From NCBI RefSeq assembly GCF_000006405.1, contig NW_003213327.1, positions 75,727-114,488 on the forward strand: a stretch of DNA of 38,762 nucleotides. The letters are read 5' to 3'. This DNA is from Perkinsus marinus ATCC 50983 (lineage: Eukaryota; Perkinsozoa; Perkinsida; Perkinsidae). Below the pieces are notes generated by a model, which was not told the DNA's origin, made no database searches, and saw only the letters and a list, made by a program, of their open reading frames with translations. Below, piece by piece: positions 1,750-30,600 of this stretch; within the stretch, counting starts at the first letter, position 1; every line of letters begins with the position of its first letter. Both the position numbers and the translations under genes were made by a program.

Positions 1750-1763
1750 AATTTTGTGGCGCG
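1750..1763 (+). promoter_or_regulatory. GTGGCGCG motif copy 1, 5' of the next gene
   Basis: Exact AATTTTGTGGCGCG, preceded by GCGCGCGT. It ends 45 nt before the predicted ATG at 1809 and lies in the divergent interval with the Gag-like ORF. A near-identical block, including the GCGCGCGTA lead, sits 5' of RPN12 at 20133-20155. Regulatory role is inferred from position. Confidence 0.45.
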
Positions 1764-1808
1764 TGATTGTATTCTTTTGACTATGCATTGCTTAGCAAAT
1801 GCATCTTC

Positions 1809-2326
1809 ATGCTGTGCGCACCCAATCACGTCAGCCTCACATCGGGAGTAGTAGCACGAGGGAGTGCCGCCCGGTTGTGGCGGTACTTCTGTGCTGAACC
1901 AGCAACAGCAGCAACGGAACACCCCGAGCGCCTAGGTAGCCGGACCCCTTCTTATGACCTTTCAGGATCGCTGGTAAAGTCGTTACTGCTCAACTCGCTC
2001 AGATGCCGTCACGGTGGAGCGCTCTCCAGTAACTATCAACACCGACCGAGACGGACGAGCCATTCTCGGAAGTGTATCCACATTCTATGATCTCGGGTCG
2101 ACCCCCCAGGGCAACTGGGAAGGTACTGTCTAAATGGGCACAGTACTTCCGAGAGGCATCTGTAGGGTCGGACATGACGCCTCTATCAGCGCATTTAGCT
2201 GCCGGTCGGGGCTTCAGGATACCCGACGGCGACCTCACTGCTCTGGTGGAAAAGGTAAGGGCTACTGGGATGTACAGGGTGATCGAAACCAAGGGCCCAG
2301 CCCTCGAAATTTCTCACCCTAGGTGA
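1809..2326 (+). CDS. unrecognised 135-aa protein, 3 exons
   Basis: Predicted exons are 1809-1935, 2003-2122 and 2166-2326, with GT-AG introns of 67 and 43 nt. Phases match throughout (408 nt, 136 codons with stop). The ATG is the first in frame after the putative 5' motif. Exon 2 reads cleanly (VTVERSPVTINTDRDGRA and onward) and exon 3 continues with SDMTPLSAHL. The N-terminus is Arg/Ala-rich and could be a mitochondrial presequence, but it also contains Cys and Asn. An alternative last intron (2255-2322, strong GTAAGG donor and pyrimidine-rich acceptor) would splice in frame to a longer tail ending near 2458, so the C-terminus is uncertain. I do not recognise the family. The gene is divergent from the Gag-like ORF and lies 370 bp before the next plus-strand gene. 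Confidence 0.55.
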
Positions 2327-2460
2327 ATATCGGAAAAACTCGGGTACCGTTTTCGAGCTCGCGGAGAGCTCTTTCCAATGGACGTATCATCGTGACTTGT
2401 CGAGATGGAATTAATTCAACTTCAAAATGGCGCCTGAGTTTGTCCGTATGGGAAAATATA

Positions 2461-2599
2461 TAGTCAATCACGTGTGTTAGTAACAATAAATGAATTTTGA
2501 GGAAATTTTAGGAAATGCTCATCGGTTTCTGTGCACATATACCCGAATTTCTGAGTAATTTTCCATAATTATCGAGGAAAGCAAACATATATTTCAACT
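2461..2599 (+). repeat. dispersed repeat, copy A
   Basis: About 140 bp, homologous along its length to 16938-17085 (same strand) and 32345-32507 (opposite strand). Shared blocks include the AGTCAAYCAC edge, a GAGGAAATTTTGGGAAAT-like core and a CGAACATATATTTCAAC-like edge. It lies in the non-coding interval between two plus-strand genes. No ORF; not assigned to a known element. Confidence 0.75.
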
Positions 2600-2693
2600 T
2601 GGGAGTTTGTCTGCCCTTCGGTTCGGATTACCTAGTAGATGCGGAGCCCTTGAGTAGGTGATATCATCCCATTCCACGGAGCGTGAGCGGCAC

Positions 2694-3658
2694 ATGTCTT
2701 TGGGTCATTGCTTGGGCGCGGCTATTGAATCTGATAGGGAGGGAAGTATCACGAGGATTTTCAGCACACTAGGGTGAGTGTAATTCTCATAGCACAGTGT
2801 TATAACCCACAGATCCACTCCGCCCCGTCACCCTACGCTCGCCTCTCTGTTGCTGGTCTACCTTCTGACCCGTTCCTCACCTCTAGAGTACAAGGGACTC
2901 CTAGAGGCATCAGCTGCTTGTGCTGGTGACAGGGAGGATGAGCTCACTGCTGTTGATGCATATCGGATTCGGTAGTATATCTGAACTCGTTTGGTCCTGC
3001 CCTGAGGTTGGTCTATAGACTGGCAACATTAGCATCACCTTTGGCTACTGAGCTGCTGGATGAGACTGACAATGCTCACTCTATGAGTCTGTCTTTTATC
3101 AATTTCGTCAACCATATTGTGCGCGGTAGTGCTCAGGCGAGTCGAGAAGCAGCAAAGAGAGAAAGGATAGAAGGTGGTTGGCGAGAGTAGGTGGTGATTG
3201 TGGTGCTTCGCTCCGCTAAGTGATGGTGGATTTTTAGTATTTATGACATTTCTGAGCTCATCGGGAAGCCCCAGTTGTATCCCCCTGATGCCAGTGAGAA
3301 TGCTCAGTGGGGATTCTATACGGGAACAGCACCGAGTAGTGAGCAATTCGTATTCTGAATTTTATGGCGCGCGACAATTCAGATCGCGAGTTCACGGATG
3401 TTGGTTCGTTGTTTTTCCCTGTGGTCGATCCGATCGAGAAAGTAGTCTATGAGACCAATGACGGCTTCCATTATGTGAATGATAAGGTGATGCTCTTGGT
3501 TATGTTCTCGGTGATGGACTCACTGTTAGACTGAGTCTCGGTGGATCCACCGACTCCGACATAAAGTGGCTGAGAAGAATGGTTACACTATAAAGATGTC
3601 ACCTCTCGCTGACTGGTGCTTAAGGCCTGGGATAAGAGAAGAAAAAGAGGAGCATTGA
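2694..3658 (+). CDS. 246-aa protein, possible RAP-like C-terminus, 6 exons
   Basis: Exons are 2694-2773, 2813-2971, 3019-3186, 3238-3338, 3383-3486 and 3530-3658. Introns are 39, 47, 51, 44 and 43 nt, all GT-AG, and phases agree to give 247 codons with stop. Frame continuity across five junctions makes a real gene likely. The N-terminal half is helical and Leu/Ala-rich. The last about 60 residues (VVYETNDGFHYVND, then KTESRWIHRLRHKVAEKNGY and ADWCLRP) resemble the layout of RAP domains: a DG.HY-type strand, a basic helix, then GY and an acidic/W motif. RAP proteins act on organellar RNA in alveolates (family knowledge). The match is by eye and weak, so the function is tentative. Intron 4 contains a copy of the dispersed GTGGCGCG motif at 3358-3371. 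Confidence 0.65.
3358..3371 (+). other. GTGGCGCG motif copy 2, inside an intron
   Basis: AATTTTATGGCGCG, one mismatch to the consensus (T to A at the eighth base). It lies within the 44-nt intron 3339-3382 of the preceding gene. Confidence 0.5.
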
Positions 3659-4060
3659 TATGGCACGTGTGCATGTGTGGTTGTTTTTGCCCGGTTTCTG
3701 GAAGGGGTACTGGCGTTGAGTTTACCACAGTGGTTAGCAAGGGGTCGAGGATCCAGCACTGGATGCACCCGAGCGTAGACTTGAGTCATTCGAGTAGGAG
3801 AAGAGACAGTGGTATTGCTGTGGTCATTCAGACTCCAGTGCTCAATACCTTCTGTGAGATGCATGAGGAAGAGGCCGCCGGATGAGATGATATTCATCGA
3901 AGTCCCTCCGGCAATAGATGGTTCTAATTCGTCGAAGACAACTATGCAATGGAGATAAGACGCTTCGTAAGACTCTCGAATAGTCCTCTTGATTGTGCTT
4001 CAACTTCGCTGGCTCGTTTGTCCGCCCTTAACACTCTATCATATTATTGTAGAATGTCTG
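3583..4060 (-). other. coding-like minus-strand segments, gene model unresolved
   Basis: Several short frames here read like protein and can be joined by tiny GT-AG introns. One chain runs from about 4030 (RADKRASEVEAQSRGLF) through VFDELEPSIAGGTS (about 3940) to a stop near 3600, but a competing frame over the same bases is also open. The end would overlap the last exon of the plus-strand gene ending at 3658. No start codon is obvious and no family is recognised. The rest of the interval up to 4326 holds nothing I can support apart from the 5' region of the Hsp70 gene. Confidence 0.3.
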
Positions 4061-4326
4061 TTGCTCAATAACATACAGCCATTTAGTTTGTCCGCTCAGC
4101 TTACAGTTCTTCGCTTTGTAAGCAGAGATGTCTTAGCATGAACATTTCCCCAATGCGTACAGTGCTTTGCCTTGAAGCCCAACCTACCGGGTCACCACTA
4201 TCGATCAACCGGGCGCAGCGAAATTGGCTGTGTTTCCTGCAATTTTCTTGCAAATATAGCATTGAGCAAAGATCAGTCCTCTCCATCCCCTTGTACGACT
4301 TTTTAGCCCCCTACAGTAACACTACT

Positions 4327-6845
<2,519 letters not shown>

Positions 6846-7114
6846 CTGTCGTGAAGTTGGCTACTAGCTGTGCAGTTGGTGCTATTCCAAGAAGTATATC
6901 TCGTTTCCGTCGATTCATCGCCACCGGTTGTGGGGTTGCTGCTGAATGATCATTGTGAGGGACCATTAGACACCCATGCCTTTGTTACTATCTCCATCAC
7001 TACTTTTACTAAATACTACGAATGATGATAACGACGAAGGATTGAGTTTCGGAAGCTCATTGATCATGTTGAGTAAAATATCACTCGGGAATTGGGCGAC
7101 GTATCTGTGACAGT

Positions 7115-8032
7115 TCATGGAGGTAATTGCTCTTGGCTCAATAACTTCCTGTCATTGTTATAACCATTCTTCTTTAGATTGGATGGTCTGTTATAGCTCG
7201 CTGGTGATTTCTGTTTGAGGGCTATACCGCTGAAACAGAGTGGGTCAACCATCGAACAGACGTCCTCTAGCTTTGCCGCCCACGGTTTGTAATGGTTCTG
7301 ATGAGAAGCTAATTGTTCGCAGTTAATTTCGAATTTCTTAGTAACCAACTGAGTGGTCTTTGCGGATGTTCACTTCTAGATAGTTGGAACTATCTATCTT
7401 CAATAGGAGCACAAACCAGCCCAATAATGATCAGCTTCATCGTTAACTGGTACTCGAAACTGATCAGGTCAATTGTCTATACTCACGAGATGAGTTGTGT
7501 TAGTAGTACGCATAGGTCTCGGCAGCATACCGAGAATCGTAGACATACCAGGATGAATATTATCAACACAAATGCTGTGCGGTCGCTGATTGGAAGTTAA
7601 CCGGGAATCAACAGTTCGACAGTTTCGTGACATCTGCAGCGACAAAGCGTAGAGAACTACGGTGGACATTAGAATAACATATACTCCGGCAAGAGAAAGT
7701 GTATAGACAATCGTTGAACTGTTTGCGTGTTTCCTTGGCTCCAAACTTGTGTGACAACACTCAAAAAGTGTCCGTTTGAGTTATTACGGGCAAGCGTACA
7801 CATTGAGCGAGAGGACCGTCTTAGTGGCGCGAAGGAGTGGTCGTTCTTGCCGCGAATCAACTTCCAGTCGGAGAGCATCATCACGTGAGTCAGCAGTATG
7901 TCGTGGACAACGGTGGCCCCTCTCGTGTCGCGCGGCCACAATGTAGTCGCGCTCGCCCTGGTATCATTACTACGTTTCGGACTGATAAACCACTGTCATA
8001 TCCTTGCCATGTGATGAAACATCGGGGGGCAT
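7115..8032 (-). CDS. unrecognised 226-aa protein, 6 exons, 5' end uncertain
   Basis: Predicted exons in transcript order: 8032-7994, 7957-7788, 7745-7685, 7633-7487, 7446-7417, 7348-7115. Introns are 36, 42, 51, 40 and 68 nt, all GT-AG, and phases agree (681 nt). Exon 2 is the most convincing: 56 open codons with a charged composition (GERDYIVAARHERGH and onward). The last exon encodes NHYKPWAAKLEDVC and a Lys/Asn-rich tail. I recognise no domain. The ATG at 8032 is only one option. Two other frames in 8040-8300 are open and could splice to exon 2 with an intron of about 86-88 nt, so the true N-terminus may lie further upstream. It is co-oriented with the small gene at 9059-9378. Confidence 0.5.
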
Positions 8033-8600
8033 ATATGAAGTACACGATTATCGTGTGTATTAATAGATGTCGACCAGAGTACATCCAAGAGCGATATAAC
8101 ATCACAAAGAATGGCAACCGTGGAGCAATGGGGAATCCAACGGTTTCAGGATACCCACCAAGGCGGGCGAGATATAAAGATTCTACGAGAGAAAAGCTTA
8201 CGAATCTCATAACATCTGTGAGAGCGACCATCTGTGAGTGTGTGCTCATCATAGGTGCGCACTTGGAGGGAGAGAGGGTGAAGAGTGAGGTAGATCGAGC
8301 GCGTGCAATCGGAGTAATGTGTGCCCATGATCGGGGTCCAGAACAGATTGGTCTCTAGCAATACGAAGTGCTGAATGAACAACTGCAGTATACGCGTCAT
8401 ACTCGAGAGAATGAGGAGAGGCAGCAACAGTTCGTTGCCGTCCACGGTGTTGACATGACCAGTACGGGTCAGTACGTCATCACTGTGGTACAAGCCCATC
8501 ATCATACCGCCCCAACCAGTCTGCATGCTTGGCCGTTTCCAAGTATACTTATCGTAAAGAGTTGTCAATCTAAGAACCCCGGGGGCAGAACCTTGGGAGG
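8033..8600 (-). other. possible upstream exons of the 7115-8032 gene
   Basis: On the minus strand a stretch near 8430-8290 reads as coding (YDAYTAVVHSALRIARD, then DPDHGHTLLRLHALDLPH). It can join through a 47-nt intron to a long hydrophobic frame (YLARLGGYPETVGFPIAP near 8170). The competing frames cannot be resolved by eye. No family recognised. Confidence 0.3.
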
Positions 8601-9058
8601 GAGGGAGGGCTAGTTTCTCAGTTTTCTCACTAGAGTTGCTGCCGACATCAGTAGTCGCGTCGTTCTATCACCTTATGGACTTGACATAGGGCATCCCAAA
8701 AGGACCACAAGTACACATCGTCAACCTCCAGGCCGAGGCGCTGCTGCTAATCACAACTGAAGCGCCAATGGGCCGCCAAGGCCTTCGTCTCCCTCAGCAT
8801 TCGGCTTTCATTGAGGACTATGACCAGTAACACAAATACTCTTTCCAATCAGATGGCAAATGTATAGTGGGAATGCTACAACTGAGAACTACTCATTGCT
8901 ACTGCCCTCAATGAGGGGCGACTGCGGAGGCATTGGTATCAGATTTAGTTATCATACATACCGTTGCCATATCGTCTGGATTGCACCTCTTGTAGTTATC
9001 AGTACCAATTAACCTAAACACACATCGTCATTATTATGCGCGGAATGTGGTCTCTCGA
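8601..9058 (-). other. unassigned interval with one coding-like stretch
   Basis: Minus-strand codons around 8850-8670 read as two protein-like pieces in one frame: a hydrophobic stretch followed by RMLRETKALAAHWRFSCD, then RLGLEVDDVYLWSFWDAL. They are separated by a single in-frame TAG. A pseudogene, a missed intron or a sequence error would all fit. The remainder, including 8880-9058, shows nothing I can support. Confidence 0.3.
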
Positions 9059-9378
9059 CTACTTCTCAGCGAGTGGCCCAGGTGGGATCATGAAGGCGGC
9101 ATAGTGATCGCCGTCACGTTCGAGCTTGGCTACGCCTGATCGATTTCTCCCATTGAAATAGGCGATTTGAGCGTTCAGCTCGGCTTGATCTGAGAGAAGA
9201 GTGAAACTAATGTGGGTGATGATCGTCAGTCGTTTGTGTGAGTGTAGTTGCGTGTAGTGTTGTTATTGCCTACCAGCTGCGGAGTCGGCCTTCATGAGCA
9301 ACAGAGCTGAGCTTTCCGCGTGATTTTGCCGCTGATGCAATACCTACCCATAACGTATTGATCTCGAGAGTTACTCAT
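9059..9378 (-). CDS. small 64-aa protein, 3 exons
   Basis: Exons are 9378-9348, 9306-9274 and 9189-9059, with GT-AG introns of 41 and 84 nt, phase 1 at both junctions and 65 codons with stop. The sequence begins MSNSRDQYVM, continues ALLLMKADSAADQAELNAQI and ends with MIPPGPLAEK. The middle has the heptad-like spacing of a short amphipathic helix. The coding nature rests on matching phases and protein-like composition. No family is recognised. It begins about 85 bp downstream of the stop of the gene at 9463-11119 and shares its strand. It is too short and too split to appear as an ordinary open frame. Confidence 0.5.
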
Positions 9379-9462
9379 GAGAAAGTGATAGCGGATCATC
9401 AAGTACTTCAATGTCCAAGAATTCTCTAAAAACTATACTCGTCTTCACTACACTACTAAACA

Positions 9463-11119: not shown

Positions 11120-11219
11120 NNNNNNNNNNNNNNNNNNNNNNNNNNNNNNNNNNNNNNNNNNNNNNNNNNNNNNNNNNNNNNNNNNNNNNNNNNNNNNNNN
11201 NNNNNNNNNNNNNNNNNNN
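11120..11219. other. assembly gap (100 N)
   Basis: Exactly 100 N, a conventional placeholder for a gap of unknown size. It removes the end of MON2 and the start of the next gene, so open frames reading through the N are not real proteins. Confidence 0.98.
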
Positions 11220-14200: not shown

Positions 14201-15712
14201 GGCGACCTGTTGGGGCGGCCGATGCTGGACTGCTGTCGCTGTCGTTCACAGTGGCATCCAACGGTGAGGAAGTGAACGCACTATCTGATGATGAGCCCAG
14301 GAAGAGGACAGTGAGGAAGCCATTGGAGGAGTCATCGGACTGTAATATCTTCTTGAAGGTCTCAAGAACAGCCGATCTGGCCCACAGTGGACGATCGTGT
14401 CGCAGCAGTAGTTGACGCAGCATCAACGGTACGAGGCCCCGAGCTGGTCCGTGGACCAATTTTTCCCCCGATGGCGAAGGGTCGCCACAGATCTCGCGGG
14501 CCAGTTGTGAGCAAAGAGGCGGGTATGAACAGAGTCGATAGACGATTCTCAATGCACGAATAAGAACCTGTTGGTGGCGCGTGGTCATTGTGGTATGTTG
14601 AGAAGCCTCGTCTTACTTTGAAATCATATTGGCAAACAGCAATAGTACTTTCCACTGTGGGGACGAGGACTTCTCGAGCGAGTTCTGTGAAGTCCGGTAA
14701 GGAAGCGAAAATGTCCGCTTGGGCAGCAAGGGCACCTTTTAAACAACGTGTGTAGGAAAACCATCGCCCTTGATTGCACATTGATAGTCTTTTGTAATGG
14801 TGATTCATGGACTCAACAAAACGCCTACTTTCGATAAGCTCTAGGGCGAGAGTTCGCGATATGGCCAACTCGCCCAACCATTTCCCTCTTGAGGCCCTCC
14901 CCATTGAAATAAGACACAGGTCGTGGACAAAGAGGAACAGTAGTCGTAGTGGACCTGATGACCAATATAAGCCCTTACCTGTAGTGTGCTGCTCTAGGGG
15001 CCGTAGTATTACCACTAGGGAGTCTATCGGGTACTGCCATTGCCTCTACCATTAACGACCCAGTATGGCCCTTGGTACGCCCACTACTGCGGCCCCCCAA
15101 GTTCTCGAAGGCCTCTTTAGACAAACTATGATAAGCCTTACCGGCTTCATCAACAAGGAAATCAGCGACTTGCCGTAGACACGCAACGGCAGTGTGCCGA
15201 ACAAGACTTGAATCACTACCGAGTAAAATAACACAGGACGATAGCAATCGTTCCATTAGGAGCTCAGAGCTTGTCAATAAAGGAGCAAAGGGAGGTGTTA
15301 ACAGCAATAGGATAGTTTGCAGTGCTTTCACTTGAACGGTTGGGTCAGTGTCATTGGCTCGATCGTGCAAATACGTCACCACAGTGGCGAGGCGTTTAGT
15401 AGTGTTCACAAGTTGCCCCATAATGAGCCTTTGAATGCAGCCAAGACAGGGGAGGATCAATCGCGAGTTGTGGGTTTCCGAAGCCACTATCACCACTGCG
15501 AGGACTTCCTCTACAGGGACTTCATCACTCGCGATCAACTTAGCGATCACTCGTTCTGAATGCTCCTTAATCTGACTGTATTTCTTTCGAGATTCGACAC
15601 ATATAATGCGAAGTTCAGCCTCAATGTCACGGACCACACTCTCCCTCGGCGATGAAGACGATGTTGCCTCAGGATGGGCAGGCGAACTAGATGATGATGA
15701 TGATGGTGCCAT
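11220..15712 (-). CDS. MON2: MON2 homologue (BIG-like Golgi/endosome trafficking scaffold), C-terminus lost in gap
   Basis: Exons are 15712-15013, 14954-14829, 14735-14617 and 14567 to the gap, with introns of 58, 93 and 49 nt and phases 1, 1 and 0. At least 1431 residues are visible; the family is usually 1,600-1,700. The start is the first ATG, followed by a Ser-rich leader, then a DCB domain (VVRDIEAELRIICVESRKKY, later LPCLGCIQRLIMGQ and VQVKALQTILLLLT). Across the first two introns come FVHDLCLIS and ISRTLALELIES, joined to LPDFTELAREVLVP, which match the MON2 HUS region only if the introns are removed. The C-terminal MON2 block LTKFKSASLDPRPAVRHCA with LGLLWNVSDAL is in exon 4. There is no Sec7 domain, as expected for MON2. 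It would act at trans-Golgi and endosomal membranes (family knowledge). Confidence 0.9.
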
Positions 15713-16828: not shown

Positions 16829-16937
16829 CGACTTCACTACCGTCAAAGTCGTAGTGTGAAAATACGCATCATCAACTATATTGTCGAGGAACTCGCAATT
16901 CCCTAGTTCGTAGCACAGCTGATTAACAGGGACAGGG

Positions 16938-17335: not shown

Positions 17336-17675
17336 TCAACGATGCATCCAATGCCTACAGTTCGTATGTTGATCTGCATTCCCTATCAAAGCGATAATCA
17401 TCGGCTTGGTAGTCCATCCGAGAGTGTATGATACCGTCATCGATCGCCGGCCGATCACCATACTGCCATGCCACGTTGGTCCTAAAGGGCCACCACCATC
17501 ACCATCGGCAAATCCCCACTAACACGGAAGAAACTGAATCTCCATAGGGTACCCCACTAGTGATACAACTGATGACCGTCGATTTACCTCGGGTAAAAAC
17601 GCCCGATTCAACCTGTTGATGCAGCGACAATTCAACTGCGTCACTACCACATAAAAGTGAGCGTATCAATAACAT
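17336..17675 (-). CDS. small 101-aa protein, 2 exons
   Basis: Exons are 17675-17553 (41 codons exactly) and 17518-17336 (61 codons with stop), joined in phase 0 by a 34-nt GT-AG intron. It reads MLLIRSLLCGSDAVELSL at the start, FTRGKSTVISCITSG before the intron and WGFADGDGGGPLGPTW after it. The leader is hydrophobic and basic and could be a short signal or a mitochondrial sequence. Other frames in the second exon are also open, so the C-terminal half is less sure. No family recognised. The ATG is only 41 bp beyond the DeSI stop on the same strand. Confidence 0.5.
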
Positions 17676-17716
17676 CTACGACTTGGTCATAGTGTCACTG
17701 GGAGTTCCACAGCAAC

Positions 17717-18526: not shown

Positions 18527-18616
18527 CGCCACAGATGAGTACTCCAACTCAATAACTTCTCTGGTGACACTAATTTTGAAACTCGCTTGACACAGTATAA
18601 ATGAAACCGTCCACCG

Positions 18617-20000
18617 CTACCCTCCCCCTCCACTGCCTTGGCTACCGTTCTGCTCTCGAGCCAAGAAGCGATCAATAGTGCCAGTAATGCTACCCAGGTC
18701 GTTACGCACCTTCACCAGGGCGTCCATCGAATGGCTCTCGTGGGCCAACTGAGGACCACCTCTGGCAGATATCAACACCATATTATCGCTTACCCTAGTG
18801 CTATAATGGTGCTCCTGCTTGGTCAGCAATGCGAATAGGCGGCGAGCTTGGTAGGTCAGAACGAAGACACAATGGTTCCTACCAAGGACGGTGGTCTGAA
18901 GAGAGCCAACCATTGAGACACCACCTAACGTTATCATCGATAGGCTTCTTCAACTTGGCCGAGGTGAGGAGGTAGTGGCTGATGGCCTCAACTGTATGCA
19001 TCACTGTTTTAGCCTTAGACATTATATCCGACGGATGCGGTGTTGATGGATCACCTAATATTATGTCGCGCGCCACGAAATTCCCCTCTGGTAGTACTCA
19101 GTTTCCCCACCAACAGAGTAGGCATCCTTTTGACATACTGTTTCCCAAGTCCACACTGACAAGCTTCTCGTCCACGGCGACTACCGTACCATAATGCAGT
19201 CTATTCTCACTTCGTGGTATATAACTATCTCCCCCGGCTGAGACATGCAGAAAAAATTGAAGGTGTAAAAGTTGCATAAACTGCACGTCTGGATGAGCCC
19301 GTCCACCTCCCTACAGTGAACTTAGATTTCCAATCCATCATCATCATCTCCTTGTCCTCCCTCTCAGCCTCCTTCCCCGGTAGCTTATCCGTGTGATTAT
19401 GGCCAATCGTAGAGCTGCCACGACCCACTGACAACCGCCGTCCGCCATCCTCAGGGTTGTCGAAGAGCTGTGCAGGTCAAAACTTTCCTTACCATGCGAA
19501 AGGGCACCTACCAGAGACATCGAGAGTTGGTCGTGGTTACTGTGGCCTTCATCAGAGGTGTCCGGGGTATGCTTGGCCGCCTTGGCCGAGGGTGGACCAC
19601 CCAAGAGGGTCTTGCACTTGGTCTAAGGATCGAACCCAATCTCCATATAGGCATATTCCAACACCTTACCACAGACTCTCTACGACGCTTGGCTGTCGAT
19701 CGTATAGGAGGTGTCCCCTCGTTCGCCCCACTATGGCCATTACGAACCAAAGCCGCCTAAGGCAAGACCCCTTCTTATTTAATGGTACCGTAAACCGGTG
19801 AAGACCTTCTCGATCAGCCGATACCCCCGTTACCTGTGCAGAGGCCTGTGATATCCTTTCCTGATCATCTCTGGACAAGGCTATGGTCCTCGACCCAGCA
19901 CTAGGGTCATACCCACCATTGGGACCTACGACCCATCATCAACCCATCAGGAAGAGGGGGACCTACCTAGTGAAGGCACAGCTGCTTGCGTGGCGGCCAT
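18617..20000 (-). CDS. unrecognised 357-aa protein, 8 exons
   Basis: Predicted exons: 20000-19967, 19925-19684, 19622-19512, 19467-19315, 19280-19139, 19087-18930, 18895-18794 and 18748-18617. Introns are 41, 61, 44, 34, 51, 34 and 45 nt. All phases agree and total 358 codons. The N-terminus is MAATQAAVPSL. Exon 2 includes DDQERISQASAQVTG and RRLWFVMAIVGRTRGHLLYD. Later parts include an acidic Lys/Glu stretch, GTVVAVDEKLVSVDLGN, a helical segment SKAKTVMHTVEAISHYLL and a Gly-rich end. I recognise no family. Two points are soft: the donor of intron 2 (GTAGAG chosen over an out-of-frame GTAAGG), and the acceptor of intron 5, where a second in-frame acceptor 33 nt on would put a dispersed motif copy inside the intron. 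Confidence 0.6.
19069..19082 (-). other. GTGGCGCG motif copy 3
   Basis: Exact AATTTCGTGGCGCG on the minus strand. It lies just after the chosen acceptor (19088) in the 357-aa gene, or inside its intron if the alternative in-frame acceptor at about 19055 is used. Confidence 0.45.
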
Positions 20001-20206
20001 GGGCGTGCCGACACTCTTCCGTCGTAGATTAATCCGAGCTTTCATTGGAGGGGCAATCAAACTGATCACGATCCAATTACCTTCTACATAGCATCTCCGT
20101 CCTGCACACGCGTATTCAAATATGCTCTCGGGCGCGCGCGTAGTTTTGTGGCGAGTGAGGGTCTAAATCAGCTGACATTGTAGAGTTGACAACAAAGTTT
20201 TACAGT
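20001..20206. promoter_or_regulatory. divergent promoter between the 357-aa gene and RPN12
   Basis: This 206-bp interval separates two ATGs pointing away from each other. It contains GCGCGCGTAGTTTTGTGGCG (20133-20152), a motif copy closely matching the one 5' of the gene at 1809. A pyrimidine-rich AG (TTTTACAG) sits one base before the RPN12 ATG and could be a 5' UTR intron or a spliced-leader acceptor, since perkinsozoans and dinoflagellates trans-splice. Promoter role is inferred from position. Confidence 0.5.
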
Positions 20207-21583
20207 ATGGCTGCTGCTGTTGCCATAGACAAAGCGGAGGTAGTCGACTCGGTCCTCGCTCTGCTGCTATCCTCAAGGATCCTGCCTTAGATAGCGATGT
20301 TGGCCCTTGGGTTCACGCCTACCGACGAGATCGTTAAGGCCCGAGACCAACTTGGGATAAAGACCCAAGGTAGTGGTAGTAGTAGTAATAGGGTAGTAAG
20401 CATATCTCAGATGAGTTTATGAAGTGGGCTAGAGGGACCTTGGAGGCTGCTGCTGTTGATGCTCTGAAGGTTGGGGATTTGGGAGGTAGGACACTGGGTA
20501 CGGCTACTAACAAGTATTTCATCGTACCATTACCTTTCTCTTTGTATACCACACTTCTGCCAGAAATACTCAGAGTTGCCTCTCTGACCGACTCTGTCTG
20601 TCGAATACCTTCCTTCTCTGCACTTAGCGTTTGAGAGGAGAGTAACCCAACTCCGCCGATATTATTTCGAGAATCCAGACAGTCACACTGCCTCCCCCAA
20701 CACGGCCACCATCATGGGCCTCTACCTCCTATTCCTATTGGTACTACTGCTACTACTACCATCATGCACACAATCATCATGCCTCAGAGTGCTGACCGTA
20801 CTGGGGAGTTCCACACCGAGCTGGAGCAGTTGCCTGAGGCCCTCACCAAGACCCCTCAGTGCCAGCTACCAGTACCACGCCCTTCGCTGAGGGAGGCTGC
20901 GCACCTTGGTGTCTGTTAGGTTGCTGTCGAGAGGTGCATCATGGAGGGTAACGGTACCAAGCTGAAGGCTTGTGTGTCACAGGCGGCCAAGGATCTGCCT
21001 CATTCAGAGCTCTTACTGCAGAGTGTGGTAAACCAGGTTCGGTAATAACTGTGTCCATCGCGATGGTAGTCTTTGTGATAGTAGTCCTACGTTCAGGATT
21101 AAAATTGCCTCTTCCTTGGAGAGAGCCTACACGTCGCTGAACTCGAAGACGGCTTGTAGGATGCTGCTGATGGACCCCAAGGATAGGAAGTCGCTGGAGC
21201 TGTTCGCCAAGGCTGAGAATGACAGGAAGGCTGCTGATGAGGGTAGTGGTGGGGCAGGGTTCTGTTGGACTATGCTTTGCCTCAGCCAACTTATCAACAC
21301 TGGAATTGGAGGATCCATCGACTCCAGCTCAAGCTAGACTGAGGAACAGGCTGAGTACTCGTTGGGTTGTAGAGGGTGACAGGTAATTGAGAGGACGATG
21401 TGGCGATGGTGTGGTATGGTAATTATTCAGACTTGTTTTCAAGAAGATACGTGATGATGCCTCAGCCATGCCTGCATTGGACCTGATATCCAATATGATA
21501 GGTAGGACTGGTTGCCGTTACTAAGGCTGAATGTTCCCCTCTTCCCTACAGGTTATGCCACGGACCTAGAGCGTATCGTGTAG
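20207..21583 (+). CDS. RPN12: 26S proteasome lid subunit RPN12 (PSMD8)
   Basis: Ten exons: 20207-20239, 20291-20369, 20411-20485, 20628-20740, 20788-20871, 20920-21041, 21097-21242, 21286-21382, 21431-21501, 21552-21583. They give 284 codons (283 aa), near the yeast length. Introns are 41-55 nt except the third, at 142 nt. Landmarks in family order: LALGFTPT, FERRVTQLRRYYF, YLLFLL followed across an intron by SADRTGEFHTELEQLP (101-116), VERCIMEGNG, the PCI-type region with SSLERAYTSLN, and the diagnostic end GYATDLERIV. The EFHTEL block and the YA..LE.IV end are hallmarks of this subunit, which helps assemble the regulatory particle. The N-terminus is short compared with animals. Divergently transcribed from the 357-aa gene. 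Confidence 0.93.
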
Positions 21584-21849
21584 GGTAGTATACTGTGCAT
21601 CGTCGTCGTCGTTGGTGGTGGTATTGACTGTTTCCACTATGTTACTGTTGTATTCATGACGTTAATGGAGAGGAGATGTTGGGGTTCACTATTCTTCTCT
21701 TTGTAGTGGCTGTAGACTGTATGGAGGGATGCCCACTTATGTGTATTACNNNNNNNNNNNNNNNNNNNNNNNNNNNNNNNNNNNNNNNNNNNNNNNNNNN
21801 NNNNNNNNNNNNNNNNNNNNNNNNNNNNNNNNNNNNNNNNNNNNNNNNN
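21584..21849. other. intergenic stretch with assembly gap 21750-21849
   Basis: 21584-21749 follows the RPN12 stop and shows no clear feature. 21750-21849 is exactly 100 N, so its true length is unknown. The 5' end of gene A may lie inside or near it. Confidence 0.9.
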
Positions 21850-22014
21850 TGTTCCTATCATCGTGGCCCTGTCCAGCCCCCCCTCCATCCTCGTGGTCTC
21901 AACTAGACTCACACTCTCCACTGTTCTAGAGGGATATTTCTAGAGTTTGAGTTGTCAATACTCAGTAGTAGGGGATCGACGCCATGGACAAACGAGCAGT
22001 TAGATTGTACCCTC

Positions 22015-24511
22015 ATGATAACCAAGGCTTGTGGGCTTGTAGTGGCCCTAGTTGGTGATTCTGTAGTGGGGTCTCACTCGGATGCTGACTGTCGGGCATC
22101 GATGGAGTCCACAGTATGTAGGCCCTTCGAGGACTATATGGCCACTGGAGGGGCCAGCGTGGTCGGGTTGGTCCATGTAGGCCTTGGGAGGAAGGGCTCT
22201 TTGGGTGTAGTCGTTGGGGCTTCAGGCCGTTTCTGCTGTGGAGAACGTTTGTGCTGAGCAGCTCTACGGATCGTCATCATCGACTTGTGGAGTGAGTGAT
22301 AATTTCGTGGCGCGGTGAAACTTCCTTGTTGGTTTCGGCAGTGCCCCCACCTACTGGAGAGCATCCAGCCCAGCCACTTCTATGAGTTGACCGGCGCCCT
22401 GGCCATGTCTTCCTCTTCAGTCGTAGCTTCCGAGACAGCCTCCCATCGGCAACTGACCACAGCAGCGGTAGGCCGGGAGGAGGTGGTGCTCGTCACTGGC
22501 GATGGTATGGCAGGTGGTCATGGGGAAGGTCAGGCTGCCCTACCCAGTGGTGATGGACCCAAGTGGTCGGACCTCGATGGATGGTATAAAGGACGCTATG
22601 TGAGACCCACTGTATGAGGGGAGGTGATGGTGCACATACGGCTACAGGGCCCATGCTCTGGCGGCTGCTGGCTTCAATCCTGTCTACACTATTATCCGAG
22701 ATGTTGCTAAGGATGGCCTCTTTGCCCAGCTGGTCTTCTCGGTACGGCCTCCTTCTGGATGAGTTGATGCTCACCTCAGACCGAGCCGATACATGTCCCT
22801 GTTGGTAGTGGCCTCACACCAGAGCAGCACGAGGAGATGGCCAGGATGGCCTATAGGGCCCTACATGTAGGGTAGAGGGGATGATGAAGGGCCTGGAAAG
22901 ATCCTGTAGGAATGCTTGGACGAGCTCATGCCCCCGTCGACTGGGGAGACTCCTTTCCAACTGGACGTGTTCCGGGGATGCCCTCTGGATGCCTCTCCCA
23001 TGGAGGTCGAGGGGGAGATAGAGATCCTGAATGCTGAGCCCACTCTGGGGTTCCGGGATAGGGTCGGTGGTCGGTTACTGTGGGTCGTTCAGGGGGGGGG
23101 GCTTCTTTACAGGTTAACACTGTACTGCGGCAGGCGCTGTCAGAGGACCTCGATCTCACCTTTAGGAACGGTAGGCTGACTAGGCCCGGCAGGGGGGACG
23201 GTGATGGTGGTGTGGTAGGGGTCACTGGAGAGGACATGACGGTAGCCACCAGTCCACGAGGCACCATTGTGGCCCACAGCTTTGCCGGGAGCTTGGTCAG
23301 GTGATGGGTACTTAGGCAAGAGACGGGGCATGATGGGGTTTCAGTTTCACCATCTACACTGATGCCAATGGTGGAGGCCTCCGACCGCATCTGGACGTCC
23401 TGGCCGACCTGAGGGACCTGAGGAGGCATCTGGCCGCGGCTGGTATCAAGAGTGTGATCAGAGTTAATGATGTCCGCAGCCTTGGTGGGGTCACCTACAA
23501 CACCAAGCGGGTGGGTTGGGGTTGAGCGTGGGGGGAGTAGTGGTGGGCTGTAGGTCCTCTACTCCTATTGTCATGGGCTCGGGGTCCTGACCAGGGCAAC
23601 TCCTCGAGAGGCCTTGGTCCCACCGGAGATGGCATGGGATAGAGAGGCTACTCAGAGTGCACTGTTTGGTGAGATCGTGAAGGCCCATTATGGCCAGGAG
23701 AAGGACGGCGGTGAGCCAAGTGTGCTGATGGAGATGGGTCGTAGAGAGGATGGGGAGGAGGAGGAGGGGCTGCCGGAGGTGGATGATGGGCCTGAAGGGA
23801 GGGTAGATGAAATGCCCGAGGCTGGAATCGAACCAGGGATCTCTGATGGAGAGAGCGCGGAGGACAGAGTGATGGATGCAGTATTTGGTAAGGAGGAGTC
23901 CCCTGAGGAGGACTCACCCTTGAACCCTGTGGTCCCCGACGGGATGGACGAGGATGGCCGTGAACCTGAGACGGGAGCCGGCATGGGGGATAGAGATCCC
24001 GAGCCAGAGGAAGGGGTCCAGGAAGACCCTCCGGGGGCACCCGAGGAGGAGGGGTCCTCCGCGGACCAGCCATGGTCCCCCAACCCAGCTGATGTTGGGC
24101 AACCATCGCAGCCTCAGCCCGGTTCTCGAGTGCCGAGGGTCCGAAGTGGCGAGTTGAAGGGCATGGCTACTACAATGGGAGGAATGAAGTCACCGGTGTT
24201 GCCGTACAGGCTTACCCCCGGTCAGCGCACCTTCAAGATGCCCATCGTAACGCATGTGGCGGGGTAGGACCCTCGTGTGTCTATCGGCTGAGCTCGTCAT
24301 CACATTCAGGGTGGTCCACTATGCTCCTCTCTTCGCCCCTCATCCCTTCCAACCCCGTATCCTCTTCCATCCGCCGGCACCACATCCCCCTAGGGCCATG
24401 GTCCTCCAGATGCCCTCAGCGGTGGGCTCACCTTACAGGCTGCCGACTAGACCTCCTCATAGCAGCGTATCGGTGGTGACCACGGCAGAGGCATCCTGGC
24501 CTAGGGAGTAG
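22015..24511 (+). CDS. gene A, unrecognised multi-exon protein, paralogue of gene B
   Basis: Exon blocks legible by comparison with gene B: 22015-22176 (KACGLVVALVG and onward), 22213-22291 (LQAVSAVENVCAEQLY), 22342-22468 (CPHLLESIQPSHFYELTGAL), about 22510-22600, 22629-22740 (HALAAAGFNPVYTIIRDVAK then LFAQLVFS), about 22912-23060 (LDVFRGCPLDASPMEVEGEI), 23100-23172, about 23340-23520 (IYTDANGGGLRPHLDVL and VIRVNDVRSLGG), the acidic exon 23614-24267, and last exons to 24511 (LFAPHPFQPRILF). Each has a counterpart in B in the same order, which is the main evidence that they are exons. The acidic exon is Glu/Asp/Pro-rich and likely disordered. I recognise no domain and no clear signal peptide. 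The start is uncertain because of the upstream gap. The stop at 24511 may be in an intron, with an alternative splice to AQTEECAVDDDVAN. Confidence 0.6.
22301..22314 (+). other. GTGGCGCG motif copy 5, inside a gene A intron
   Basis: Exact AATTTCGTGGCGCG within the 50-nt intron 22292-22341. The corresponding intron of gene B (33604-33659), at the same codon position and phase, lacks it. Confidence 0.55.
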
Positions 24512-24606
24512 GTGGGGGGTGAGAGGTGGGGGACAGGTCCCCTTGGGCAGGCCCAGACGGAGGAGTGTGCCGTCGATGATGATGTTGCCAACACAGCTCA
24601 ACCGGA

Positions 24607-27600
24607 GTGGTAGACCGATGGAGGCTGGGGAGCTTGAGTAGGGTGGGCTGGGTGATGAGGGAGGTGATGACCCCTCTCAGACATAGTGGAGTCCCTCATG
24701 CGGTAGAGTATAGGAATGTGCTGGCCCCACAGGAGGCGGACTTCGTGGTGGGCCGCATAGGGAGGGTGGGCAGTGGTCTTGTATTGGTACTGATGATGAC
24801 TATGTTGTGGGCCAGTTCCCTGAGCCGGCTCTGGAGACTGCTCTGACCTGGGTGGACAAGATGGCCCTCTCGACGGTGGAGGGGCTGAGGGAGAAGATGG
24901 AGCATGTAGGTGGTGACCCTCCTCCTTCTCCCGGGCCTGTGGTGGCCTCAGCTTTACAGCAAGTACCCGAGCACGGCAAACACGAGGGCCTTCGCTCGGT
25001 TTGTTAAGGATGGTCTTTTCGAAGGGGACATAAGGCCCATCAGGACCATGAGGGGCCTTCGGAATGCCATCAAGCACGTCAGTGAGAGTAGGACCATCCC
25101 AGTGCATGTGGGAGTATACTGTTGGGCGTCGTGGTGGTGGTCAGTCTTTCCTCGGTTCGCCTCCTTCCGTGCTGGAGTGGCCACCATACTGGACTCGTGG
25201 ATCCTCCTCCTGACCTCTCCAGATAAGCACACGTTGGTCTCGGTGAGGAAGCTGCTGAGTCGGTCGTGGTGTGGAGCATCGGTCAGCTCTTCCGAGAGGC
25301 CCCGTCGGAGATCTATGCCCTAATGGACGCCAATGGGGACGGCCTCATCTCTTTTGACGAGTTCACAGCCTTTGGCCGTACCATTGCCGCACCCTCATTC
25401 GTCTTTTCTAGGGAGGTAGGCAGGGACTGATCGGTAGGCCGAACTCAGAGGCTTTGGGCCTTCTGTCCCGACCAGTCAATATGGCCGAGCTTTTCACACT
25501 CAGCCGAAGTGCCTCAGGCCTTCGAGGGGATGCTGTCGGAGGAAGAAGGGGAGAGTGTTCGAGTGCAGGACTTCGAGGAGTTGTATAGGACCATCGCCCA
25601 GGGGAGGCAACAGTGGTCGAGTTCTCCTTGCCATGAGTGGTGGTCTGGTCAGATTGAGTGCCTCGATAGCGGACAAGGCGGTCCAGTTGGTGATGGACTC
25701 TCTCACACTCGAAAGCCGTTTCTCGGACCTGGATGGGGGCCGCCACAACGACCTCTCGCTGGAGGACATCGGCTGGAAGGGTCCAGTGGGGGAGGCTGTA
25801 ATGGGACCGTGACCACACGGAGGGGGGCGGCCCACCGTCTTTCCTCAGCTCTTCTTCTACCTAGACTCCAACAGAGACGGCGTCTTGTCTCGTTATGAAT
25901 GGCAAAGGCTGGTGATCATCCATCGGGCACCGTTGCTGGTCCGCCGTTTCGCCTTGTGGTAGGCGGCGGTCTTGGCCCATCGTGGGGGGAGTGGCGGTCC
26001 CTGCTCTTTAGGGTGGCGCATAGGGTGGGGGACAACCTCCTGCCATACTCGGTAGAGCCTTTTGTGACTCGGGCTAAGGAGCGTCTAGGGAGCATGCCCG
26101 AGAGGTATGTGCCGGTTATCAAGGGGGCTCTGGACTCCTTAGGAGCTGGTGAGTAATGGCCCTCGGGGATAGTGGAATGATGTGGTGTGTAGGTGAGCCG
26201 TCGGATGGTGACTACGGCCTCTTGCGAGCCATGGCGGGCGGTAACGAGATGAACAACTTGGTGGCCACGGAGTTCTATCTGGGTTATGGTCGCCGCCCGC
26301 GACTCACCTCGAAAGCACTGGGCGCGGATCATCGAGGGAGGCGACATCACCGAGGCCATCACCATCACCACCACCATGGACCGACTTCCTCCTTTCTTGA
26401 GGAAGGACCACAGGTGGGCATAGGTCATGGGTCCTAGCCCTCCTCGCACGGCTCTTGTGAGGGTTTAATGTGCTCAGTGGAGTCGTCTGCCATTGGAGTA
26501 CAGTCTGAGGAAGCTCTCACCGACGACTCGAGTCAGTGCTAGGGACTTTGCAGATTTCGGCAAGTCTATAAAGGCCCCAACCGCTGTGTTTTCTCGGACT
26601 GTGAGGAGGGGGTCACTGTGTGGCCTACGAGTTGGAATGCCTATGGCAGGCCTACGACCTTCTGGAGTATCCTTCTGGTCGGGACGCTGAGGACCTACTG
26701 TCTACCAAGAGTGATGTGTTGCATGCTGTATCGAAGGACCTTAGGTAGGAGGACGAGGAGGCGGGCTTGGTTATAGGAGTCCCCCCAGTAGGGTACTCAG
26801 TGACCGCGCATAGGTATCTTAGGTTATTCCGTGGTTGATACGGATGAGGTTGGGAAGATATCATAGTACAGGGTGTTAATTTAATAAGGGCCATCCCCTG
26901 TCTATTGTGACAGAGTTAGGACCTCAGATCCGTACTGCTCGAAAGCTCTCATCGTGGCATATACTACGCTTGTTCGTTGGGGTGGGTTGATGATGTACTT
27001 GTGATACTGGGGAGTCCTAAGAACAATTCTGGCTTTGTTAGGGCTCCCAGGGAATTGACGGGGCCTGATGATCTTCTTGATAAATGCTTTCAATATCACC
27101 CCATCCATCGCCTTCCCTCAGGAATCACCGTCGTATTCACCTCATTCTGGACTCCCTAATATTGGGCCAACGTTTCAAGGAGTTGGATGCCAACGGTGAT
27201 GGAGAGCTCTCGTTGAAGGAGTTGGGGCTGGGAGCAGCTGATCGAGCGGTGAGGTTTGGTCAGGGTGTGGTATCGAGCCTATTTGGAAATGTGGCTTTGA
27301 TAGTCTCCTGATTATGCTGAATTGCTTGGCCCGGGTAAAGGGCCTCTCAGGGGCTGATGATCTTTAGGAGTTCCCGTAACTGATGTTGTTTATGCAACAG
27401 TTACCTTTCCAAATTACTTCGTTCCCTCTCCTTCTGTGTATTATGATCTCGGGATGCTGTATGCGGTTAGGTCTTTGCTGTGGTGGACCTGGACGGCTCC
27501 AACACGTTATCTTTGGGCGAGCTTCAGAGGTTGGCTGCCTTTGGAGAGGACATGGTCCCTGCTAGTGCGATCTTATTGGCTCAGAAGTAGGTGGGAGGAG

Positions 27601-30600
27601 GTGTCTTTCTCGGGTGCTGTGGCCGTTGCTCAGAGTGCAAGCTAAGGCGGACGGCCCGGTAGAGGCCTATGTCGCTGCCGCTATGCGGGCCATGGAGGGC
27701 TTCACGGGTTTTGAGAGTGCCGAGATAGGGGAGCTTCTTGATTTTGATGACGATGGTAGGCTGGGGGCATGGGGCGATAGAGAGGGGCCGTCCTCAGGCT
27801 ACATCGACCATCGTGAAATTGCGATGCTGAGGGTCTTGTCGTTGCCCCAAGGGGTGGCCAAGTATCTGCCACAGTCAGCTTATGTGATGGATAAGATTGA
27901 CGTCGGCGTTGGATGGGCCGAGGAGGACTTCACCAAGATGGGCTTGGGCCTGCAGGCCAACCGTCGAGCCTTCTCCCATAAGGTGGGACGTGCGTCTCTT
28001 TGGTCGTCATCGTCGTCGATGGTCCGGTCAGAGCTTTGAGTCGCTGGCCCAGTTATGGGACGGGAGGATACCGAGGGAGGCTGTGGAGGTGTGGATGAAC
28101 GCCGTTCGCCACAAGTGAGGGGGCAGCGGGTGGTAGGGTAATGGAGATAATTTCGTGGCGCGGTGACGCAGGCGGTTATGGCGGCTTCTGGCGGTCTTCT
28201 CTGCGGTGAACACGGACGCCTTCTTCACGGCATTCGATGGGAATAAGGACGGCAAGCTGAGTGACGATGAGCTTCGACGCTGGATGGGCAATTTTCCCTT
28301 GGTCAGCCTCGTGACGGTAGGTCCCATGGGGGAAGGGGCGCCAGAAAGGGTTGCTGGGACAGGTCCTGGAGGTCCTGGGCCAAGGTGAAGGCGACCAGAG
28401 GGGTATAACCCGAGAGGGGCTACAGAGGTTCTCCTTTCTCTTCGCGGTCGGCCCAGCTGTGAAGCTACTAGCATTGAGGTGAGCGTTGATGGGGGGGAGG
28501 GGCTGATGCCGCCTTCGGCAGTATCCCACGGTCGGCCGCCGCCCCAGAGAAGTTCGTGGAGGAGTTCTCCACAGTGTTGGCACGAGTGAAGTCCCCTCGG
28601 GTCCGGGCGAAGATTGTCCATGCTCTCGATCTGGATGGCGATGGTGAGGGCCTCCGTGGGGCCGCTGGAGCATCAGCGCCCTTCCATGTAGGTGAGCTTA
28701 GCCGAGGGGAGATCCTTGGTCTCCGAGTTCTGCATCAAGCAGAATTCCTCCTCCTCCTTGAAAGTCTCCTCCATCACGGCTTCGCTACCATCACTGAGGC
28801 CAAGGCCAGTAGCTTCTTGGAAGAGGCCAGGAGCTCGGAAGTGGTAGGGTTAGCTGGCCCACTGTCGACCTGATGTTATCGAGGTGTGCAGGTGTTAACG
28901 GAAGGCTATGCTGAAGGAGCCTTCGTGGAGCTGGACTCAGTGAGGGCACGGTCGGCTGGGTAAGGTCATGGTTGGCTCAGGTCTATCAAGTGCTTGGTCC
29001 GAGTGCCCACCATGGCCGTAGGAATGTAGGATGGATATGGACGATGGGTCTTCGCAATTGGGACTGTCGTTATCAGGGGCATCATTCGCAGTGGTCCCGG
29101 CGGTCGGAGGGGAAGAGGAGGAAGGGAAGGAGGCATCAACGGGAGAAGAAGGGCAGCGATGGCAGCGTGAGGGAGGCCCCTGATCAACAACACGGTGGTG
29201 GTATTGCCGAGGCTCGGCCGTCACGGGGGAGTTTGGCGTCAGAGGCGTCCGCATTGATGGCCGCAGCGGAGGGTATGGGCGACGGACGGCACGAGGAAGG
29301 GGTTATTGATGGTGTTGGAAGGGACCACCACAGAGACGCGGCTGAGGAGGTGAAGCCAGACCATGCAGAGGACCATAACAGTGAGACCGTTGAAGAGGTG
29401 AAGCCAGACCATGCAAGGGACCATTACAGTGAGACCGTTGAGGAGGTGAAGCCGGACCATGCAAGGGACCATTACAGTGAGACCGTTGAGGAGGTGAAGC
29501 CGGACCATGCAGGGGACCATTACAGTGAGACCGTTGAGGAGGTGAAGCCGGACCATGCAGGGGACCATTACAGTGAGAGTACTCCAGAACAACGAGTTTC
29601 AAATGAGTCTGTGGAGTCGGGCCAAGAACCTCCCCGTCGGGACGGCTCAACTCAGGATGCAGCAGGGGAGGGCACTACACCCAGGTCGGGGACAGCTGGG
29701 GTCGGAGAAGGAAGGGAGGCGGCCGTTGATAATGCGGGTGATGAGGAGTTGCTGGTCGATGAGTGGGAGGAGGAGGATAAGGGGGGCGAATATGGAGCTG
29801 ACCATCAGGGGGGCCACCAGAGCAGAGACAACAACACATGGAGCATCTCAATGCACGTAGGCCTGTTGATGGAGGGGTGACAGCAGATGACTTCATCACC
29901 TCTTAGGAGTATCCCTCAGAAGGCTTTGAGAAGGTCACTGGGCAAGCCCTAGGGGGCACGGTATCGGTCGAGGAGTTCCAACAGACTGGTGTACGGCTTG
30001 GGGTCAGTCAGGCCTATACTAAGGAGGTGGACCCCTTCACTACAGCCCTTTATACTCTCCCGCATAGGTGTTCAGTCTTATGGCTGGCAAGGACGCCTCG
30101 GTGCTGCCAGTTGGCCACTACGCTGACCTTTATCGTAGCTTCAAAGACGTCCGGTGGGGACGGCCCCGGTCTAGCATGTTGGTCACTGGGGCCTCTTAGG
30201 AATCTGGCAAGGGTATTTCATATTCTGGACTCCATTAAGATGGAGATGCGTTTCACCGACTTGGACCTCCATCGAGACGGCTTGATCTCGTTATCGGAGT
30301 TTGGGTGTGGCGAGTGCAAGTCCGATACGGTATCGGAAGAGGAATGTGTAGGTTGGGCGGAGCGGAGCAGTCAGTGGAGCCATCTGCTTAGATGGCCGTT
30401 GGGGAGCTCTTCCTGTACGTGGCCGATGGTCTCAATCAGTCGTCAATTGCCCGACGGAACTGGCAGAAGCTCGTTCGGGTGGATGCGGACACCATACCCC
30501 CAGCGGTGGCTGTGGTGTTGGAGGGGTGAGGAGGAGGAGGCCTGCTGTGGTGGGGGGACTGGATGCGTTGACTTGTCAGCATGGGAGAGGTACCAAGGCA

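What the first reader, a model, noticed from the sequence alone, without database searches (positions are those of the whole stretch)
1750..28162. A 14-nt motif, AATTTYGTGGCGCG, recurs in 5' regions and inside tiny introns
Four exact copies (1750, 19069 minus strand, 22301, 28149) and two near copies (3358, 20142) occur in 38.7 kb. With equal base use, fewer than 0.001 exact hits would be expected. Copies at 1750 and 20142 share a longer block with a GCGCGCGTA lead and lie 45-51 nt before predicted ATGs. Copies at 3358, 22301 and 28149 lie inside predicted introns of 44-57 nt, and 19069 may too. The reading frame after the motif is not kept, so the constraint is on nucleotides. It could be a promoter or splicing element, or the footprint of a very small mobile sequence.
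Basis: partly seen in the sequence, partly recalled or inferred. Interest (0 to 1): 0.75.

Follow-up and report, generated by a model that had tools for sequence, protein, structure and literature searches.

The report
Repeated regulatory-type DNA word in Perkinsus
A DNA word of about 17-25 letters occurs hundreds of times in the genome of a Perkinsus oyster parasite, in front of genes and inside its very short introns, and is best explained as a landing site for an unknown gene-control protein rather than a splicing signal or a mobile element.

Summary
The window is Perkinsus (97% protein identity to P. marinus). AATTTYGTGGCGCG has 826 exact copies in the 54.46-Mb assembly (reversed control 0), 1542 with up to one mismatch (control 6), and 2237 with up to two (control 152). 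Among 53 sampled copies, my own gene model puts 30 in introns (20% of bases), 22 between genes (35%) and 1 in coding sequence (45%). Intergenic copies lie near gene starts in either orientation.

The conserved element is longer than reported: BAATTTYGTGGCGCGYGR plus a weak, partly palindromic right arm to about +25; beyond that, mean similarity is chance-level. Three findings favour a DNA-level protein-binding site. The 24:6 sense bias in introns is what intron composition predicts. Position within introns is free. Two diverged U1-C genes keep the element 36-49 nt upstream of their ATG. Insertion into introns is not supported: median length is 52 nt, not 61 or more, with no target-site duplication. 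A second word, GCGGAGCGAAG (1249 copies, control 12), behaves similarly.

Best reading: a long, near-invariant cis-regulatory site, with minimal introns serving as regulatory space. The binding protein and function were not tested.

The parts
1750..1763 (+). exact copy AATTTTGTGGCGCG, intergenic, with GGCGCGCGCGT directly upstream; about 211 nt from the start of the minus-strand gene ending at 1545
3358..3371 (+). 1-mismatch copy AATTTTATGGCGCG in a 44-nt intron
3339..3382 (+). predicted intron holding the 3358 copy
   Evidence: own HMM gene model
14574..14583 (+). core only, GTGGCGCGTG, antisense inside the 49-nt Mon2 intron 14568-14616 (minus-strand gene)
19069..19082 (-). exact copy AATTTCGTGGCGCG, sense, in a 56-nt intron
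19055..19110 (-). predicted intron holding the 19069 copy
20142..20155 (+). 2-mismatch copy AGTTTTGTGGCGAG, 51 nt before the predicted ATG at 20207, with GGCGCGCGCGT lead
22301..22314 (+). exact copy in a 50-nt intron; homologous copy on C122 reads AGTTTCGTGGCGCG
22292..22341 (+). predicted intron holding the 22301 copy
28149..28162 (+). exact copy in a 57-nt intron; lost by a 5-nt deletion in the 94% homologous region on C122
28115..28171 (+). predicted intron holding the 28149 copy

Best explanation
The element is a long, near-invariant cis-regulatory DNA site, read as double-stranded DNA by a sequence-specific, probably dimeric, chromosomal or transcription factor of Perkinsus. Shown here: genome-wide excess; near-exclusion from coding DNA; proximity of intergenic copies to gene starts in both orientations; free position inside minimal introns, with an orientation bias that intron composition predicts; clustering of copies; and retention between two diverged U1-C genes. 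Inferred: that a protein binds it, that bound sites tune transcription of the host or neighbouring gene, and that tiny introns carry it because in this compact genome they are available non-coding space that stays close to genes.
For: 826 exact copies, control 0. Of 53 sampled exact copies (49 of the first 50 listed places plus the 4 in the window), 30 are intronic (intron share of bases 19.8%, P 3.7e-9) and 1 is in CDS (CDS share 45%, P 1e-12); 22 are intergenic. Intergenic copies: 10 of 22 have a predicted start within 200 nt (random 21%, P 0.010) and 15 of 22 within 350 nt (random 34%, P 0.001); without the duplicate L047 P is 0.022 and 0.002. Of these 15, 14 lie upstream of the start, 7 sense (two of them the near-duplicates L021 and L047) and 7 antisense (my count). 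Intron orientation 24:6; composition alone predicts 5:1 to 16:1 for the 14-mer, and 24 of 30 fits 5:1 (P 0.62) and 6.2:1 (P 0.30). The CGAAA-type long form, for which composition predicts only 1:1 to 2.6:1, is 3 sense and 2 antisense. Distance from donor 2-34 nt in the short introns, no 5' bias of host introns. Homotypic clustering: 30 of 96 listed sites have another within 3 kb, 8.4 expected. Two U1-C-like genes (L017: zf-U1 E 1.2e-18; its relative L051 by DNA, about 78% identical) keep all 14 bases and the nearby CTTCGCTCCGC while the rest of the leader has diverged with gaps. Right flank carries a weak inverted copy of the left arm (CGAAATT, z 7.3 against shuffles).
Against: No binding, expression or chromatin data exist here. 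Intergenic DNA as a whole is not enriched (22 of 53 against 35% of bases, P 0.32); introns are favoured over it (30 against 22), which a plain promoter element would not predict. About 2000 sites need 16-17 bits to be found, while the mismatch counts suggest roughly 21 bits (my hand estimate), unusual for one eukaryotic factor. Pfam on 20 exons of host or neighbouring genes gave 3 matches above the curated cut-off (RRM_2, AtuA, AMP-binding) and 2 below it (Mpp10, FAM32A); 15 gave none, so no regulon can be named. One pair of copies shares 38 nt. One homologous copy has lost the site by deletion. Paralogue retention rests on one diverged gene pair.
Confidence: 0.6

Rival explanations
1. A DNA-level site with an architectural rather than gene-regulatory role (insulator or loop anchor, replication-origin or recombination site), again read by a protein as double-stranded DNA.
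For: Long, near-invariant site, both orientations, clustered, spread over introns and intergenic DNA without regard to position in the gene. 31 of the 53 sampled copies are in gene bodies.
Against: Enrichment near gene starts and retention in the two U1-C 5' regions point to gene control. No test of replication or chromatin structure was possible.
Confidence: 0.2
2. Footprint of a very small mobile element or of introner-like intron gain: each copy was inserted, and most of the insert has since decayed.
For: Hundreds of near-identical copies; two loci without other similarity share 36 of 38 positions; clustering could be local hopping. Motif introns of 70 nt or less are longer than other such introns (52 against 47, Mann-Whitney P 1.6e-4). 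In Amoebophrya, another dinozoan lineage, introners with inverted and direct repeats were reported (PMC7789003, passages read).
Against: Mean similarity at +26..+50 and -15..-2 equals shuffled in 54 copies. No target-site duplication above chance over 360 boundary and length combinations (best z 2.8). Median of short motif introns is 52 nt against 61 or more expected after insertion into introns of median 47 (the cap of 70 nt leaves out 5 of 30 motif introns, of 80-195 nt). U1-C 5' copies outlived the divergence of their surroundings.
Confidence: 0.12
3. An RNA-level splicing or trans-splicing element (intron-definition enhancer, branch-region extension, or outron signal before a spliced-leader acceptor).
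For: 30 of 53 copies in introns, 24 of 30 sense (P 0.0014 against 1:1). Acceptor-like sequence follows several 5' copies by eye, and Perkinsus uses spliced-leader trans-splicing (PMC9399869, passages read).
Against: Sense bias is predicted by composition. 6 antisense intronic copies, 5 of them with strong splice-site scores of 9.7-12.5. Intergenic copies score like background as introns (median 3.0 against 3.3). Distance to the 3' splice site ranges from 9 to 41 nt in the short introns. Most introns lack it: of 442 introns of 40-62 nt, 20 hold the exact sense word and 416 have no GTGGCGCG on either strand.
Confidence: 0.06

Closest known systems
Eukaryotic transcription-factor binding sites in promoters and introns (general kind)
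   Same: Short conserved DNA word, both orientations, near gene starts, homotypic clusters, rare in coding DNA, kept between one pair of paralogous 5' regions.
   Different: About 17 conserved positions with hundreds of exact copies; more than half of the sampled copies inside gene bodies, filling about a third of introns of 44-60 nt; factor unknown.
E2F/DP sites (TTTSGCGC; recalled, no call)
   Same: T-rich arm followed by a GC core with CGCG.
   Different: The core here is TTTYGTGGCGCG with extra bases between arm and core; not the E2F consensus. No E2F test was run.
Introner elements (reported in Micromonas, Aureococcus and Amoebophrya; PMC7789003, passages)
   Same: Repeated sequence found inside many introns of a protist related to dinoflagellates.
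   Different: Those introners carry inverted and direct repeats at the intron ends; here only about 25 nt is shared, at free position, and also outside introns.
Perkinsus spliced-leader system
   Same: Acts at 5' ends of genes in the same organism.
   Different: The reported spliced-leader exon (ACCGTAGCCATCTTGGCTCAAG, PMC9399869) bears no resemblance to this word.

Membership tests
cis-regulatory (transcription-factor) site | genome-wide excess over matched control | tested here: met
   826 against 0 exact; 1542 against 6; 2237 against 152
cis-regulatory (transcription-factor) site | enriched near gene starts and depleted in coding DNA | tested here: met
   10 of 22 intergenic copies within 200 nt of a start against 21%; 1 of 53 in CDS against 45%; gene model is my own HMM; intergenic DNA as a whole not enriched (P 0.32)
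cis-regulatory (transcription-factor) site | conserved between diverged homologous promoters | tested here: met
   one pair only, the two U1-C-like genes
cis-regulatory (transcription-factor) site | bound by a protein and changes expression | not testable with these tools
   no chromatin, binding or expression data
introner / mobile element | end-to-end similarity of inserts | tested here: not met
   mean identity at +26..+35, +36..+50 and -15..-2 equals shuffled, 54 copies; one exceptional pair of 38 nt
introner / mobile element | target-site duplication | tested here: not met
   best z 2.8 over 360 combinations, 52 copies
introner / mobile element | length gain at occupied sites | tested here: inconclusive
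splicing element | sense orientation only | tested here: not met
   6 of 30 antisense; bias explained by composition
splicing element | fixed distance to a splice site | tested here: not met
   from donor 2-34 nt and to acceptor 9-41 nt in the short introns
E2F/DP site | match to the E2F consensus and E2F-type target genes | not tested
   resemblance recalled only

The most novel reading that the evidence does not exclude
Perkinsus uses a small vocabulary of long, near-invariant DNA words (at least AATTTYGTGGCGCG and GCGGAGCGAAG, 826 and 1249 exact copies) placed in 5' regions and in the smallest introns, so that minimal introns form a genome-wide regulatory or architectural layer read by lineage-specific, possibly multi-part, DNA-binding complexes. 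This would be a dinozoan control system unlike the ordinary short degenerate promoter motifs.
Probability: 0.3. Interest if true: 0.8.

Novelty: new variant of a known kind. Interest (0 to 1): 0.58.

Why it matters
How perkinsids and their dinoflagellate relatives control transcription is, to my knowledge, poorly known. I found no report of this word in my searches of the paper library, which cover open-licence papers only. A concrete, countable sequence with hundreds of instances makes the question testable: fish out the protein that binds it, and ask whether genes that carry it are co-expressed. It also suggests that introns of 45-60 nt, often seen as minimal spacers, can carry a long DNA-binding site.

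Tried and rejected
Branch-point extension: the TGAC after the core looked like a branch site, but 416 short introns without the motif core show no positioned TGAC or TAAC signal. Rejected.

First-intron or 5' bias of intronic copies: host-intron ranks run from first to last, and 7 of 30 lie within 300 nt of the predicted ATG (4 of the 30 are in genes cut at the 5' end) against 22% of all introns. Rejected.

All intergenic copies being missed introns: their best intron scores equal background (median 3.0 against 3.3). A few, such as L018:4524 antisense (11.9) and possibly L021/L047 (6.5), look intronic. Rejected as a general rule.

Target-site duplications, Rfam families in the window (0 matches), and a printed name for the motif (361 papers hold the letters GTGGCGCG; only 15 were listed, with unrelated titles, and none was read): nothing found.

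Functional convergence of host genes: too few Pfam hits to judge.

Length caveat: motif introns of 62 or 70 nt or less (medians 51.5 and 52) are slightly longer than the space-weighted expectation of 48-49 (P 0.004-0.04); with a cap of 100 nt the difference vanishes (P 0.2-0.4).

A tRNA-like origin of the repeat at L017:3600-3925 was suspected and dropped: no B-box-like stretch there and no tRNA gene found.
Full report
WHAT THE WINDOW IS. The window is contig C238:75727-114488 of a 54.46-Mb, 347-contig assembly. A Mon2-like protein from it is 97% identical to a Perkinsus marinus ATCC 50983 protein and 71% to one of P. olseni, so the organism is P. marinus or a very close relative. The tool holds no relatives of this assembly, so no cross-species DNA comparison was possible.

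THE OBSERVATION. Six copies are at the stated places. Genome-wide counts are 826 exact, 1542 with up to one mismatch and 2237 with up to two; the same pattern read backwards gives 0, 6 and 152. This is far beyond chance, but the assembly contains near-duplicate regions, so independent sites are fewer. From these counts, net of controls, about 826, 710 and 549 sites have 0, 1 and 2 mismatches. A single uniform decay rate would predict 283 for the last class, so there is a tail of degenerate sites.

GENE MODEL. I wrote a two-strand hidden Markov gene finder, trained on long reading frames and iterated. It recovers exon structure consistent with the Mon2 protein matches and gives 688 GT-AG introns of median 51 nt with AG|GTAAG...YAG|GT borders. 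It is not a curated annotation, misses short first exons (for instance probably at L021) and merges tandem genes (one predicted gene in the window has 73 exons).

WHERE THE COPIES LIE. I placed 53 exact copies: 49 of the first 50 listed by the genome search, plus the 4 in the window. 30 are in predicted introns, 22 between genes and 1 in coding sequence, in DNA that is 20% intron, 35% intergenic and 45% coding. The intron excess (P 3.7e-9) and coding deficit (P 1e-12) are strong; intergenic DNA as a whole is not enriched (P 0.32). Within it, copies are near gene starts: 10 of 22 within 200 nt and 15 of 22 within 350 nt, against 21% and 34% of random intergenic positions. Of those 15, 14 are upstream of the start, 7 sense (two near-duplicates) and 7 antisense (my count). 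Intronic copies show no preference for first introns and sit 2-34 nt from the donor in the short introns. Listed sites cluster: 30 of 96 have another within 3 kb against 8.4 expected, in all relative orientations. I did not test systematically how far local duplication or gene density contributes.

ORIENTATION IN INTRONS. 24 of 30 intronic copies are sense. A composition model of motif-free introns favours the sense over the antisense 14-mer by 5- to 16-fold. 24 of 30 fits 5:1 (P 0.62). For the CGAAA-type long form the model predicts 1- to 2.6-fold, and those copies are 3 sense and 2 antisense. Five antisense copies lie in introns with strong splice-site scores. The bias therefore needs no RNA-level function.

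THE ELEMENT ITSELF. Flanks of 52 copies show that the conserved stretch is B-AATTTYGTGGCGCG-Y-G-R (no A in front in 52 of 52; C or T at +15 in 48; G at +16 in 48; A or G at +17 in 51). Several right-hand versions exist (TGACG 18 of 53, CGAAA 7, CGGTA 6, and others). In 54 copies identity is raised at +20..+25 and falls to chance beyond +25 and upstream of -1. The right flank carries a weak inverted copy of the left arm (z 7.3), as expected for a dimeric protein. The 1750 and 20142 copies, and L046, share an extra GCGCGCG block in front, a possible 5' sub-type.

MOBILE READING. No target-site duplication exceeds chance. Two loci (L022 and L054) do share 36 of 38 nt with no aligned similarity outside. 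This is one pair and may be a composite regulatory module, but it is the strongest hint of copying.

CONSERVATION. Two U1-C-like genes (zf-U1 in L017, E 1.2e-18; the relative L051 is 78% identical by DNA) keep the full 14-mer 49 and 36 nt upstream of the ATG, antisense, together with a neighbouring CTTCGCTCCGC, while the rest of the leader has diverged with gaps. In younger duplicates the word is kept with one change (22301 homologue), kept intact twice (L041 homologue), or lost by a 5-nt deletion (28149 homologue).

A SECOND WORD. GCGGAGCGAAG has 1249 exact copies, control 12. Its 8-base core GCGGAGCG occurs in introns, between genes and also in coding sequence (11, 10 and 14 of 35 in the sample). 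Of 52 sites of the first word, 15 have one of the second within 3 kb against 6.7 expected (P 0.002), but within 1 kb the excess is not significant (5 against 2.3, P 0.08) (expectation from genome-wide density, contigs C1-C21 only).

MECHANISM. Most likely (0.6) the word is a binding site for an unknown sequence-specific protein that acts on double-stranded DNA to control nearby genes. Tiny introns are used because they are non-coding space within genes. Shown: placement, orientation behaviour, clustering and retention in one paralogue pair. Inferred: protein binding and effect on transcription. An architectural role (0.2), mobile origin (0.12) and splicing (0.06) are the rivals. Nothing here identifies the protein.

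LITERATURE. Searches for Perkinsus with introner, intron, promoter or conserved-motif terms, and for the letters GTGGCGCG, gave no report of this word among the listed papers (open-licence papers only, lists capped). Passages of PMC7789003 (Amoebophrya introners) and PMC9399869 (Perkinsozoa spliced leaders) were read; the rest were seen as search listings only.

Pfam count corrected to 15 of 20 exons without a match; U1-C distances corrected to 49 and 36 nt; the length test for insertion is now marked inconclusive because of the small residual gain; a tRNA-like label for a repeat was withdrawn.

Noticed in passing
window 15763 (+), 3209 (-), 30357 (+, GCGGAGCGGAG): Second short word GCGGAGCGAAG, 1249 exact copies genome-wide (control 12); in the window it lies about 50 nt upstream of the predicted Mon2 gene start and in a tiny intron, with a one-base variant in another tiny intron.
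   Followed up: partly
L022:5000-5037 and L054:201-238: Two otherwise unrelated loci share 36 of 38 nt: the motif plus a downstream CCAAAGCGCAGTTT block; could be a third word at fixed spacing or a longer copied unit.
   Followed up: partly
G000:C43:17616-17869: Five exact copies of the word in a tandem array with 41-42 nt steps and one larger gap.
   Followed up: no
window 22001-28700 and G000:C122:136517-143138: Collinear region of 94% identity elsewhere in the assembly (also L041 against C79, 97%): segmental duplication or retained haplotypes.
   Followed up: partly
introns of L009-L048 and window: TAC/AGT triplet runs (TACTACTA) are strongly concentrated in introns: 122 intron, 20 intergenic, 12 coding in 298 kb.
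   Followed up: no
window 34869-38033: 1054-residue stop-free frame with long acidic tandem repeats (EDGHxEVEDGH and DGVPEPVHGEDGVIEGVDDGR types); its start resembles the frame at 23554 by eye; no Pfam match at E 0.001.
   Followed up: no
L017:3600-3925 and more than 20 listed matches: Interspersed repeat of about 326 nt upstream of the U1-C-like gene, matches 73-94% identical across the genome; nature unknown.
   Followed up: partly
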